Of a stretch of 64,000 nucleotides of DNA, positions 35,990-44,014 are shown piece after piece. The position numbers and the translations under genes were made by a program. The notes beneath the pieces are model-generated. The model was not told where the DNA came from. It saw nothing but the letters and a program-made list of their open reading frames with translations, and searched no databases. The stretch is from Manis javanica (taxonomy: Eukaryota > Chordata > Mammalia > Pholidota > Manidae). The DNA lies in assembly GCF_040802235.1 (NCBI RefSeq), contig NC_133169.1, forward strand, positions 46,383,034-46,447,033, in the 5' to 3' direction. The stretch's first letter is position 1; every line of letters begins with the position of its first letter.

Positions 35990-36323
35990 TGTCGCGCGCC
36001 CCGTCCTCGCCGGCAAGAACAGCACGCAACAACAGCAGGATTCTTCTGCAGAAAGCTTTATTCTTCAGCTCTTTGTGAAACAAATGAGTTGGGCAGGACC
36101 CAGAGGGGAAGGAGAGGCTTGCTTATATAGTTCTCATGCTCTGACCTGGTTGGTGCGGCTCCATATGCCTTATTAGCATAACCATTTGGTGGGTCTCATT
36201 GGTCCTTATGCCAAGGCGCAATTAGCATGTAGTTTAGTGGTGTGGGATGATTTGTCATTAGGAAGTTCGGGGCCTTCCGGCTGCCCTGCATGGGGCGCTA
36301 TTTTCTGAGCACGGCTGCCAACA
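35990..36323 (-). repeat. 3' LTR of the provirus (334 bp)
   Basis: Minus-strand ends are TGTTGGCAGC and GCGCGCGACA. The TATA box TATATAA is at 36123-36129 and AATAAA at 36057-36062 (both read on minus). It is identical by eye to the copy at 43681-44014. The AATAAA here would direct polyadenylation of the viral RNA. Confidence 0.96.
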
Positions 36324-36337
36324 TCTCCCCCTTTTTT
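36324..36337 (-). promoter_or_regulatory. Polypurine tract
   Basis: On the minus strand AAAAAAGGGGGAGA directly abuts the 3' LTR. This is the RNase H-resistant primer for plus-strand DNA synthesis. Confidence 0.9.
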
Positions 36338-36669
36338 GTCTAACAGAAGCTCAAGGCGGAACTTGCCAGCAGAGGCGGAGACAGAGGCCTGACCTCCATC
36401 ATACTTCCTGATGCCCCCTTTTTGGAGAGGGGTTCTGGGCATCTACCCCTATGCAGTCAGGCATGCCTCTCAGAGGGGTCCAAGACCTCTTGCAGTGCTT
36501 TGCCTCGCATCCTCTGGCTGGCGTTGGGACCGCTTGGTACAAAGGGTTTGGACCCTTTTTCTCAACCCTCTTGCACCATGAGCTTCTTAAAGAAAGCTGT
36601 GATTAAGCATTGAGGTACTCGGGCCTGGTGCAGTGCCACATGGGCTCAGGGTGCAAGAGCTACCTCAAG
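36338..36669 (-). other. Proviral region between env and the polypurine tract, no gene
   Basis: About 330 bp without a credible frame. IAPs and simple betaretroviruses keep RNA-transport elements in the 3' part of the genome, so a structured export element is possible here. I have not shown one. Confidence 0.5.
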
Positions 36670-38445
36670 CTAAAGCCGAGCTTCCTTCTTAAGCATGTTG
36701 AGCCACACTTGGGGAGAGGCGCCAACGTCTATCGCCATTAGGGCTTGAGCAAGGATCACCTTGTCCTGCTTATGTTGGTTGCGGAGTCTACATAACAACC
36801 AGAGTAAGAGCATGAGACCTCCAAGCAGGAACACGCCCATCCCAGCCATGCCCGCCCACTCCTTGACGTGGGAGAGAGCTCTGAGGAACCAGGAAGAGAG
36901 TCCTTCCGCTACGGAGATATCTAGACGGGTGGAGTTGATGTGGATAATTTCTCGCCGCAGCTCTTCTAGTGTCCCATCGAAGTCTTGGGACCAGTTTCCT
37001 GAAAGATACTGGGACAGGTCTCGTGACAGATTAGCTGCCCGTGTAAAATTTTTATATTGAATGCTAGTGATGCAGAGGGCACGATATTTCCGCTCACATC
37101 CCAATTGGGCCATTTGCCAGAGCACCTCCATTTGTTCCTCCACGAGATCTATGCGTTGATTGAGGATCATTATTCCTCCTTTCAGTTTGCCATCAAGTGT
37201 GGACTGTTGGTCCAGGGCAGAAGCTACTGAGGCTGCAAGGTTATTGAGCTCTGTAGCCGATTTGATGGAGGTGTCTAAAGCTATACCAGCGGCGGTGGCT
37301 GCGACCGCGGTCGCGGAGATCAGGAGCACTATGGCGGCTGTAACACCGAAATCGCGCCTTTCTCGAAACAGAGTCATGGTGTTAGGGGCGTCTACGGGAA
37401 CAGGGACCCAACGGGGGATGCGGACTACCAAAGCATTGGTAAAGTTACGCGCATCCCAACACTGAGACAGAAAGCAGGTTTCATTGGAGCAGGAGTCAAA
37501 GCTACTATTGGATAAGATAAACAGAAATGGGGGGTATACGCATACTGGAGAAGGTGGAAAAAGGGAATTAGGTGACTCTGGACCTGATTTTGCTGAACAC
37601 GTGTAGTTCTCGTTGTTATGGGTCATGATCATGTTCCAGTGTGCGCGCATGTGGTTATTCTCGCACCAAAAGGTGATATTTTTTACACCGATTCCCCCAC
37701 CCTGGAGGGCGGAAAAGGGGGAGAGGTCGGTACACGAGCCATTGACTCCACACAGCATCCATTTATGGAAGGGGTTCATGCTCAGCTGCTGACGAAACTC
37801 GCCTTCGAGCACCTTTACTGGCCACCAAGCCTCATTGGCTGGCCGTCCCTCCATATCTGGGGAGATGGTAAACTCCTGCCTCTCAGTTGCCCACGTTACT
37901 ACAGTTGACTGACAGTCAGTCCAGGGCCACAGCTCTCCCTCATAGTCGCCCACACAATGGGAGGCATATTTGGGTTGACGAGGCCTGTCGGTGGAATTGT
38001 TCCTGGGAGAGTGTACAAATGTGCCATTGATCCAGAGAACCATCTGGTGGATAGTCATGTTCTTATAGGACGGGCTCCCTTCCTTATTAGGCCCTTCAAA
38101 TTTAGCTGACATAACGGGGAGGCTACTGGCCTCTAGAATTATGTCACTGAACCATCCGTATTTCCTCCGTTTCAGGGAGATACAGCCAGCTAGATTCTGA
38201 GTGGTGAAGCATAATGACCCATTAGTTACGAAGGATCGGTTTTCTCCCAGGGGAGCTACTAGGGTGTCTTTAACTAAGTAGGGCAAGTTCATACTAGTAT
38301 TGGTAGTGAAAAAGCGCGGAAAAACGGCTGCATTGAAACGGACAGGCATAGGCTTAGGAAAGGCAGACAGGATTCCCCATCTCAATACTCCCTGAGTCGG
38401 GGTCTCCAGTGTCAGGAGCAGGGTCAGGAGGTACAGCGAAGTCAT
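36670..38445 (-). CDS. env: env: betaretroviral envelope precursor, intact frame
   Basis: A 591-residue frame would yield SU and TM subunits for receptor binding and membrane fusion. Residues 1 to about 19 are a hydrophobic signal peptide. SU is cysteine-rich with many N-X-S/T sites (such as NGS, NNS, NIT and NET). A furin-type site RERR lies at 361-364, followed by an Ala-rich fusion peptide (about 365-390), a heptad-repeat region, a cysteine pair at 450 and 458, a membrane segment at about 532-554 and a cytoplasmic tail of some 37 residues. No break was found. It overlaps the end of pol by 92 bp and would be expressed from a spliced RNA. Rodent IAPs mostly lack env, so the nearest analogue is the env-bearing IAPE type. 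Function is not tested. Confidence 0.94.
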   Translation of the reverse strand: MTSLYLLTLLLTLETPTQGVLRWGILSAFPKPMPVRFNAAVFPRFFTTNTSMNLPYLVKDTLVAPLGENRSFVTNGSLCFTTQNLAGCISLKRRKYGWFSDIILEASSLPVMSAKFEGPNKEGSPSYKNMTIHQMVLWINGTFVHSPRNNSTDRPRQPKYASHCVGDYEGELWPWTDCQSTVVTWATERQEFTISPDMEGRPANEAWWPVKVLEGEFRQQLSMNPFHKWMLCGVNGSCTDLSPFSALQGGGIGVKNITFWCENNHMRAHWNMIMTHNNENYTCSAKSGPESPNSLFPPSPVCVYPPFLFILSNSSFDSCSNETCFLSQCWDARNFTNALVVRIPRWVPVPVDAPNTMTLFRERRDFGVTAAIVLLISATAVAATAAGIALDTSIKSATELNNLAASVASALDQQSTLDGKLKGGIMILNQRIDLVEEQMEVLWQMAQLGCERKYRALCITSIQYKNFTRAANLSRDLSQYLSGNWSQDFDGTLEELRREIIHINSTRLDISVAEGLSSWFLRALSHVKEWAGMAGMGVFLLGGLMLLLWLLCRLRNQHKQDKVILAQALMAIDVGASPQVWLNMLKKEARL

Positions 38446-43510: not shown

Positions 43511-43660
43511 GGTGCCTCCTTATTTACAGAGAACCATCAACCATTATCCTAAAAAGCAGGGGCCTCTCGGAACTTACCCCTCCGGGCTTTCTTCTGACCT
43601 GCAGTTCTGAATCCTCTCCAGATGTCTGAAGGGTCCTCCCTGTGCCGGTGATGTTCTGGT

Positions 43661-43678
43661 TCCCGGGTTTCGGCACCA
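43661..43678 (-). promoter_or_regulatory. Primer-binding site matching tRNA-Phe
   Basis: Two bases inside the 5' LTR, the minus strand reads TGGTGCCGAAACCCGGGA. This is complementary to the 3' end of vertebrate tRNA-Phe(GAA) ending in CCA, as I recall it. IAPs also prime with tRNA-Phe; most betaretroviruses use tRNA-Lys. Confidence 0.88.
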
Positions 43679-43680
43679 CT

Positions 43681-44014
43681 TGTCGCGCGCCCCGTCCTCG
43701 CCGGCAAGAACAGCACGCAACAACAGCAGGATTCTTCTGCAGAAAGCTTTATTCTTCAGCTCTTTGTGAAACAAATGAGTTGGGCAGGACCCAGAGGGGA
43801 AGGAGAGGCTTGCTTATATAGTTCTCATGCTCTGACCTGGTTGGTGCGGCTCCATATGCCTTATTAGCATAACCATTTGGTGGGTCTCATTGGTCCTTAT
43901 GCCAAGGCGCAATTAGCATGTAGTTTAGTGGTGTGGGATGATTTGTCATTAGGAAGTTCGGGGCCTTCCGGCTGCCCTGCATGGGGCGCTATTTTCTGAG
44001 CACGGCTGCCAACA
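43681..44014 (-). repeat. 5' LTR of the provirus (334 bp), promoter copy
   Basis: Identical by eye to 35990-36323. On the minus strand the TATA box is at 43814-43820 and AATAAA at 43748-43753. U3 is CpG-poor, while U5 is GC/CpG-rich (GGGGCGCGCGACA). Transcription would run leftward from here. Confidence 0.96.

What the first reader, a model, noticed from the sequence alone, without database searches (positions are those of the whole stretch)
35990..44014. Very young IAP-like provirus with complete env in a genome that does not look rodent
LTRs of 334 bp appear identical, a clean 6-bp duplication flanks the element, and gag, pro and env are unbroken. The tRNA-Phe primer site, LTR length and LTR termini match the intracisternal A-particle group, best known from mice and hamsters, yet no rodent SINE (B1/B2) occurs in the window. 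A recent IAP-like invasion of another mammalian order, with env, would suggest a circulating or recently extinct betaretrovirus and possible ongoing germline activity.
Basis: partly seen in the sequence, partly recalled or inferred. Interest (0 to 1): 0.92.

Follow-up and report, generated by a model that had tools for sequence, protein, structure and literature searches.

The report
Young IAP-like retrovirus in Malayan pangolin
This is a very recent copy of a mouse-IAP-like retrovirus in the Malayan pangolin genome; the copy itself has a broken polymerase gene, but the same genome holds many near-identical copies whose genes are still open, which makes it a rare chance to study a retrovirus settling into a mammal's germline.

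Summary
Window 35990-44014 (minus strand) is a provirus with two identical 334-bp LTRs, a 6-bp duplication, a tRNA-Phe-type primer site and open gag, pro and env. Pol of this copy is frameshifted. Gag, Pol and Env-TM fall with IAP/IAPE-type elements, mostly of rodents. Capped genome searches (lower bounds, youngest copies first) name 124 places: 73 of 74 scored env loci, 54 of 57 pol and 73 of 75 gag are open. In a systematic sample 17 of 19 complete LTR pairs are identical (2 mismatches in 6,346 sites), so this layer is roughly 0.04-0.16 million years old. A 3.0-kb deleted derivative with one shared junction has spread too, presumably helped in trans. It is partly known: a 2023 survey lists invading retroviruses in M. 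javanica, and a 2025 paper describes a possibly related lineage in Chinese pangolin. Reinfection or retrotransposition stays open: env variation in a small, biased set of copies looks neutral.

The parts
35984..35989 (.). target site duplication TTAGTT, left copy
35990..36323 (-). 3' LTR (334 bp)
   Evidence: identical to the other LTR
36324..36337 (-). polypurine tract next to 3' LTR
36670..38445 (-). env, 591 aa: SU, RERR furin-type motif at aa 361, fusion peptide, TM with CX7C (aa 450-458), 16 N-glycosylation motifs
   Evidence: HERV-K Env-like fold
38354..40768 (-). pol: open part, 804 codons (most of RT, RNase H, integrase), stop included
40769..40962 (-). stretch holding the start of RT in a different frame (frameshift; gene broken in this copy)
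40980..41930 (-). pro frame: dUTPase, aspartic protease, G-patch (stop included)
41753..43510 (-). gag, 585 aa: p10-type matrix, PPPY, capsid, two zinc knuckles; starts MG
43661..43678 (-). primer-binding site, tRNA-Phe type
   Evidence: tRNA assignment recalled
43681..44014 (-). 5' LTR (334 bp), TATAA and AATAAA inside
44015..44020 (.). target site duplication TTAGTT, right copy

Best explanation
The element is one provirus of an IAPE-like betaretrovirus family (IAP with envelope) that entered and is expanding, or until very recently expanded, in the germline of the Malayan pangolin. Full-length, env-bearing copies can supply Gag, Pro, Pol and Env (open gag, pol and env frames shown; pro tested in the window copy only). 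They insert by ordinary retroviral integration with a 6-bp duplication (shown). Spread by particles that re-enter germ cells is my preferred reading (inferred, about even odds). Their proteins also move a 3.0-kb internally deleted derivative in trans (structure shown, helper relation inferred). The copy in the window has identical LTRs but a frameshifted pol, so by itself it could make Gag, Pro and Env but not full RT (inferred). The confidence given is for identity, host, youth and family, not for the reinfection step.
For: Structure. Host: contigs C3 (217,799,483 bp) and C10 (119,352,310 bp) have exactly the lengths of the contigs of the two named M. javanica Env proteins. Kinship: pol with one unnamed row is sister to a 25-row set holding IAP Pols; the gag CA-NC clade with M. 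pentadactyla has support 100, the TM clade 100/100; the Env model has HERV-K Env as its only PDB matches at E <= 0.001. Family in the genome: 73 of 74 scored env loci open, 54 of 57 scored pol loci with 883-885 open codons, 73 of 75 scored gag loci without stop; 124 distinct places on 19 contigs. Check without choosing by env: of 57 pol-selected loci 38 are in the env list and 17 of the other 19 have env open over its length, 55 of 57. Youth: 17 of 19 complete LTR pairs identical, 2 mismatches in 6,346 sites, 17 of 19 with an exact 6-bp duplication. Derivative: 17 of 19 single-locus stretches share one junction; 10 of 17 stop in gag at codon 18.
Against: Env variation among 17 copies and the window shows no clear purifying selection: 40 nonsynonymous and 18 synonymous changes (and 1 stop) against 37.6, 18.0 and 3.3 expected. 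Changes shared by two or more copies are 10 to 9 against 12.0 to 6.1 (P 0.12); the rest are 30 to 9 with 1 stop. So open env frames may only reflect youth. Those 17 are pol hits that did NOT reach the env list, so they lean towards copies with more Env changes, which weakens this test. The copies scored are those closest to the query, so age and openness apply to the youngest layer. Many tree rows are unnamed, trees are rooted at the midpoint, and several forks have support under 95. No second individual or species could be searched.
Confidence: 0.82

Rival explanations
1. Intracellular retrotransposition: after one or few germline infections the family multiplies inside germ cells like mouse IAP, and env is open only because too little time has passed to lose it.
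For: Neutral-looking env variation (with the bias told above); a deleted derivative without pol or complete env has multiplied.
Against: 55 of 57 pol-selected copies keep env open over its length, so no env-less full-length form is seen among them. Gag begins MG and has PPPY, which I recall as features of particles that leave the cell. Among the other rows of the TM clade (P0003-P0008) SU has diverged far more (46-61% identity to the window) than TM (77-89%), the pattern of an exposed, used envelope.
Confidence: 0.35
2. Repeated independent germline infections by a still circulating exogenous pangolin betaretrovirus, rather than copying of one founder.
For: LTRs agree within pairs but differ from the window LTR by 0.3-1.5% between copies, so several sublineages were active within a short time; near-identical pol and gag occur in unnamed read-archive contigs (P0175, P0055).
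Against: Those contigs may simply be host DNA; such divergence can also arise during copying by reverse transcriptase. No virus outside the genome was seen.
Confidence: 0.2
3. Copies are multiplied mainly by chromosomal duplication or by assembly error.
For: Tandem units exist: gag hits at multiples of 7,692 bp on C3 and C5, LTRs spaced 2,660 bp on C16.
Against: 17 of 19 sampled full-length copies with complete LTR pairs and 14 of 17 sampled deleted copies have their own exact 6-bp duplications, on many contigs.
Confidence: 0.03
4. The element is not IAP-like but another betaretrovirus (HML, MMTV or type D), or an alpharetrovirus as the Chinese pangolin paper labels its tRNA-Phe lineage.
For: Env fold and TM best match HERV-K in the PDB; PMC12584738 puts its tRNA-Phe lineage with Alpharetrovirus by RT.
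Against: Pol is 63% identical to a Swiss-Prot IAP Pol and 64% to a Chinese hamster IAP Pol; RT and integrase chains that I take to be those of MMTV score 421 and 273 bits against 1,100 for the IAP Pol. Gag has the p10/p24 domains, pro has dUTPase and G-patch.
Confidence: 0.05

Closest known systems
IAPE, IAP elements with envelope, mouse (PMC3197615, abstract and passages seen)
   Same: IAP-type element plus an Env gene; infectious progenitor of IAP in mouse; over 200 copies there
   Different: host order Pholidota; this Env is about 40-51% identical to named rodent Envs where at least half of it aligns (no row is labelled mouse IAPE); receptor use here untested
IAP of mouse and hamster, with the IΔ1 deletion form (PMC6466679, passages seen)
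   Same: tRNA-Phe primer and similar LTR length (recalled), Pol 63-64% identical to named IAP Pols, many very young copies with identical LTRs, a deletion form that needs help in trans
   Different: IAP lacks env; here env is kept. The IΔ1 deletion is 1.9 kb in gag and pol; here 5.0 kb from gag into env
ERV-Alpha-Mpen of Chinese pangolin (PMC12584738, abstract, passages, Results and Discussion read)
   Same: tRNA-Phe primer, group II, dUTPase and G-patch, env present; M. pentadactyla Gags sit in the same clade as the window Gag
   Different: 13 copies, dated 1.41-3.47 My, called alpharetrovirus. The paper excepts this lineage from having the Cys-His box and PPPY, which our Gag has: a point against identity.
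Invading ERVs (ERVi) of Wang and Han 2023 (PMC10435555, abstract, passages and sections 6 and 9 read)
   Same: identical LTRs, open genes in the family; M. javanica and M. pentadactyla are among the hosts
   Different: which lineages are meant in M. javanica was not found in the text seen; the words IAP and betaretrovirus do not occur in the main text

Membership tests
IAP/IAPE group of betaretroviruses | Pol, Gag and TM branch with IAP/IAPE | tested here: met
   pol fork 94, gag fork 95 with the inner sister set at 80, TM neighbour fork weak (63/41), so placement inside or just beside the group is not settled
IAP/IAPE group of betaretroviruses | tRNA-Phe primer site and LTRs near 340 bp | tested here: met
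   tRNA and typical IAP values recalled
IAP/IAPE group of betaretroviruses | betaretroviral domain set (p10, p24, dUTPase, protease, G-patch) | tested here: met
IAPE (with envelope) | complete env of beta type, without CX6CC | tested here: met
   CX7C and no CX6CC; 591 aa open
IAPE (with envelope) | Env makes particles infectious through ephrin A | not testable with these tools
   known for mouse, PMC3197615
IAP in the strict sense (intracisternal particles) | env lost and particles kept inside the cell | tested here: not met
   env present and open; particle site itself not testable
Invading ERV (ERVi) by Wang and Han | identical LTRs | tested here: met
[quoted passage not shown]
   pol of the window copy is frameshifted; other copies were looked at gene by gene only
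Invading ERV (ERVi) by Wang and Han | insertion polymorphism in the population | not testable with these tools
   one assembly only
Alpharetrovirus | RT and Gag closest to alpharetroviruses | tested here: not met
   betaretrovirus and IAP relatives rank first; no alpharetrovirus row was in the trees

The most novel reading that the evidence does not exclude
The Malayan pangolin is in the middle of a germline invasion by an infectious IAPE-type virus: most of the hundred or so youngest copies seen have open genes, several sublineages were active within roughly 100,000 years, and a parasitic deletion form is already riding on them. It would be an intermediate stage between an infectious IAPE ancestor and IAP-like retrotransposons, caught outside rodents.
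Probability: 0.45. Interest if true: 0.8.

Novelty: new member of a known kind. Interest (0 to 1): 0.62.

Why it matters
Ongoing retroviral invasion of a germline has few credible documented cases (PMC10435555 names koala retrovirus A). Here a critically endangered mammal holds dozens of near-identical proviruses whose genes are open. That lets one ask directly whether an IAP-type element spreads by reinfection or by retrotransposition, when env is lost, and how soon deletion parasites appear. It also matters for reading pangolin RNA data, where IAP-like ERV genes are already reported (PMC10776870), and for host health studies.

Tried and rejected
Viral contigs (IMG/VR) searched with the pol ORF: one stretch matched a pattern, none encodes a relative. 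Rfam: nothing in the window at gathering score. ARAGORN: no tRNA gene in the window, so the primer-site assignment rests on recall; the tblastn half used a wrong option and returned nothing; only its blastn column is used; one search repeats the test properly. Selection test on env: no clear signal, told as evidence against reinfection, with its bias. Rows dropped: gag tree used 110 of 120 listed hits plus the window (those with 230 aa or more aligned; 317 hits existed); TM tree 42 of 54 hits plus the window; pol tree 61 of 120 listed hits plus the window after thinning at 88% identity (434 hits existed), which also dropped P0175, identical to the window over 797 residues. In some searches two of 19 env pieces with length differences were left out. 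Exact-pattern copy counts could not be had: the request did not complete. Chromosomal duplication and assembly error were set aside for most sampled copies because they have their own duplications.

On absence in print: among the papers listed in searches (open-licence PMC only, several lists cut: 25 of 50 papers, 15 of 417, 15 of 57) I saw no title, abstract or opened passage that names an IAPE-like family in Malayan pangolin. PMC10776870 speaks of IAP-like ERV genes and PMC10435555 of invading ERVs in that species.
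Full report
OBSERVATION. The finding is real and its coordinates are right to the base. Positions 35990-36323 and 43681-44014 are 334-bp LTRs without a single difference, flanked by TTAGTT on both sides. The element reads on the minus strand: 5' LTR at the high end, primer site at 43661-43678, gag 43510-41753, pro frame 41930-40980, pol, env 38445-36670, polypurine tract, 3' LTR. Pfam finds the betaretrovirus set: Gag p10, p24 and two zinc knuckles; dUTPase, protease and G-patch; RT, RNase H and integrase; gp41-like TM. The one flaw is pol. 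Its frame is open for 804 codons, and the start of RT lies in another frame. In all 20 sampled sister copies this start is in one open frame, and each of the 20 differs from the window by a single one-base gap, with 0-3 mismatches, over the 401-bp comparison. So the frameshift is not shared by any of the 20; a sequencing error cannot be excluded.

HOST. Env is 99% identical to a protein of Manis javanica and at best 61% to named M. pentadactyla proteins; the window env differs from the first at 5 of 591 positions, and window gag from an unnamed read-archive protein at 1 of 585. Two named M. javanica Env proteins lie on contigs of 119,352,310 and 217,799,483 bases. Contigs C10 and C3 of the window's own assembly have exactly these lengths.

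KINSHIP. Pol is 63% identical to a Swiss-Prot IAP Pol (species not shown; it groups with Mus spicilegus) and 64% to a Chinese hamster IAP Pol; the best solved relatives are a retroviral RT and integrases that I take to be those of MMTV (name recalled), with much lower scores. In the pol tree (62 rows after thinning) the window joins one unnamed row (support 95), and the two are sister to a 25-row set holding these IAP Pols (fork 94). In the gag CA-NC tree (111 rows) six rows, the window and two named M. pentadactyla rows among them, form a clade with support 100. It pairs with a 40-row set (inner support 80, joint fork 95) that holds rat 'igE-binding protein-like' Gags and hamster IAP. In the TM tree (43 rows) nine rows form a clade at 100/100: the window, three named pangolin rows and five unnamed ones. 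All named rows outside it are rodents, but the fork next to it is weak (63/41). Of the 24 named among 54 Env hits, 7 are pangolin, 16 rodent and 1 mouse lemur (counted). Non-rodent Gags (Sorex, Cynocephalus, Microcebus, Rhynchocyon, cetaceans) also occur in the gag list, so IAP-like elements outside rodents are not confined to pangolins. A rodent source for the pangolin lineage is plausible, but direction and date of transfer were not tested. Trees are rooted at the midpoint.

ENVELOPE. Env has a signal-like start, a RERR motif, a fusion-peptide-like stretch, CX7C in TM and no CX6CC, so I take it as a beta-type envelope. An AlphaFold model from 23 sequences (mean pLDDT 68.8) has HERV-K Env as its only PDB matches at E <= 0.001. 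Among the other rows of the TM clade (P0003-P0008), SU is 46-61% and TM 77-89% identical to the window. That contrast suggests a surface protein under pressure over the longer time scale (inference).

THE FAMILY IN THE GENOME. Genome searches score only the best candidates, so numbers are lower bounds and lean to the youngest copies. LTR query: 40 of 1,365 candidates scored, all over the full query, 15 at the top score, window included. Env: 74 of 1,627 scored; 73 of 74 without stop over all 591 residues; 29, window included, share the top score. Pol: 57 of 11,884 scored; none with a stop in the 797 residues; 54 of 57 with 883-885 open codons, the window with 804 and two with 809. Gag: 75 of 6,840 scored, 73 of 75 without stop. 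The three lists name 124 distinct places on 19 contigs, tandem units counted singly. To judge env without choosing by env, I looked at the 57 pol hits: 38, window included, are in the env list, and 17 of the other 19 have env open over its length (one of them three bases shorter), two are broken. That is 55 of 57. In a systematic sample of 20 from the env list, 18 of 20 have gag open. I did not ask in how many copies all genes are open together.

AGE. In that sample of 20 (every fourth row, plus the last), 19 have two complete LTRs at full-length spacing. 17 of the 19 pairs are identical, with 2 mismatches in 6,346 sites, and 17 have an exact 6-bp duplication. At 2.2e-9 substitutions per site and year (rates recalled) the mean age is 0.07 million years, with 0.035-0.16 for rates of 4.5e-9 to 1e-9. 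A single identical pair, as in the window, only bounds the age below about 2 million years. LTRs of these 20 differ from the window LTR by 0.3-1.5%, although pairs agree, so several sublineages were active. None of the 20 has the window's exact LTR over its full length; that LTR type is shared with the deleted derivatives below and a few full-length copies.

A DELETED PASSENGER. Of 20 sampled LTR hits nearest to the window's LTR (window and two units of an array left out) three had an LTR at the full-length place, one of them by coincidence in a tandem array. In 17 of 19 single-locus upstream stretches (and in the array) one and the same junction joins gag (window 42063) to env (37034), removing 5,028 bp: the end of gag, pro, pol, SU and part of TM; one stretch has another deletion and one runs through undeleted. 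The deleted element is about 3.0 kb long. Of 17 deleted copies tested, 14 have complete LTR pairs and exact duplications, with 11 mismatches in 4,676 sites (one of the 14, L052, has the different deletion). Of 17 with an alignable gag start, ten end at codon 18, five keep 483 codons, two run 125 and 476 residues. They cannot make the enzymes they need, so they must have moved in trans, as I\u03941 IAP and ETn do in mouse (PMC6466679, passages). Informative sites are shuffled among copies, which suggests recombination between co-packaged RNAs (inference).

MECHANISM. Shown: structure, integration signature, open genes in many copies, youth, a deletion form. Inferred: particles leave the cell and reinfect germ cells. 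For it: env kept in 55 of 57 copies, Gag starting MG with PPPY, SU divergence. Against it: env changes among 17 copies and the window are what neutrality predicts (40 nonsynonymous, 18 synonymous, 1 stop; expected 37.6, 18.0, 3.3). Shared changes are 10 to 9 (expected 12.0 to 6.1, P 0.12), the others 30 to 9 with 1 stop. Those 17 were the pol hits outside the env list, a set that leans to more Env changes. Youth alone can explain open frames, so I put reinfection only slightly ahead of retrotransposition.

WHAT IS KNOWN. PMC10435555 (abstract, passages, sections 6 and 9) surveyed 2,004 vertebrates for invading ERVs with identical LTRs, intact genes and polymorphic insertions and shows M. javanica and M. 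pentadactyla among the hosts; supplements could not be opened. PMC12584738 (abstract, passages, Results, Discussion) describes in M. pentadactyla a tRNA-Phe, group II lineage with env, dUTPase and G-patch, called ERV-Alpha. It may be kin of this family and better filed near IAPE, but I could not compare sequences, and the paper excepts it from having the Cys-His box and PPPY that our Gag has. PMC10776870 (passages and section 16) reports genes closest to mouse IAP as the commonest group of differentially expressed ERV genes in Malayan pangolin skin. PMC3197615 (abstract and passages) shows that mouse IAPE can infect cells and is the progenitor of IAP. The present family is thus a new member of a known kind; its special points are the host order, the many open env-bearing copies, and the passenger form.

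Corrected after rereading the calls: the ERV-Alpha comparison (a point against was missing), the bias of the env selection test, identity figures for rodent Envs, the wording on tree neighbours, and counts that include the window.

Noticed in passing
G000 C3:190900168-190924998 and C5:150876721-150909243: gag copies at multiples of exactly 7,692 bp, i.e. tandem proviruses sharing LTRs; four units listed on each (one step of two units on C5). Either LTR recombination or an assembly effect.
   Followed up: no
G000 C16:32688900-32698656 (L003-L005, L012, L032, L069): Tandem array of the 3.0-kb deleted derivative with LTRs spaced 2,660 bp.
   Followed up: partly
L052 (C12:59522563-59527063): A second, different internal deletion (window 42455 to about 37296) whose gag frame also ends at codon 18, which suggests recombination among deleted forms.
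   Followed up: partly
window 50132-51181, minus: Open 349-aa olfactory receptor frame (Pfam 7tm_4), about 6 kb from the provirus.
   Followed up: no
window 16625-17224, minus: FAM217-family frame (Pfam E 1.6e-27) amid other open frames up to 18065; may be a retrocopy.
   Followed up: no
window 2713-8230, plus: LINE-1 with an open ORF1 frame (294 aa) and an RT-bearing part of ORF2; just upstream a 57-bp tandem repeat, perhaps its 5' end.
   Followed up: no
P0231: A protein filed under Trypanosoma congolense is about 65% identical to this Pol and groups with Mus IAP rows: likely rodent DNA in that record.
   Followed up: no
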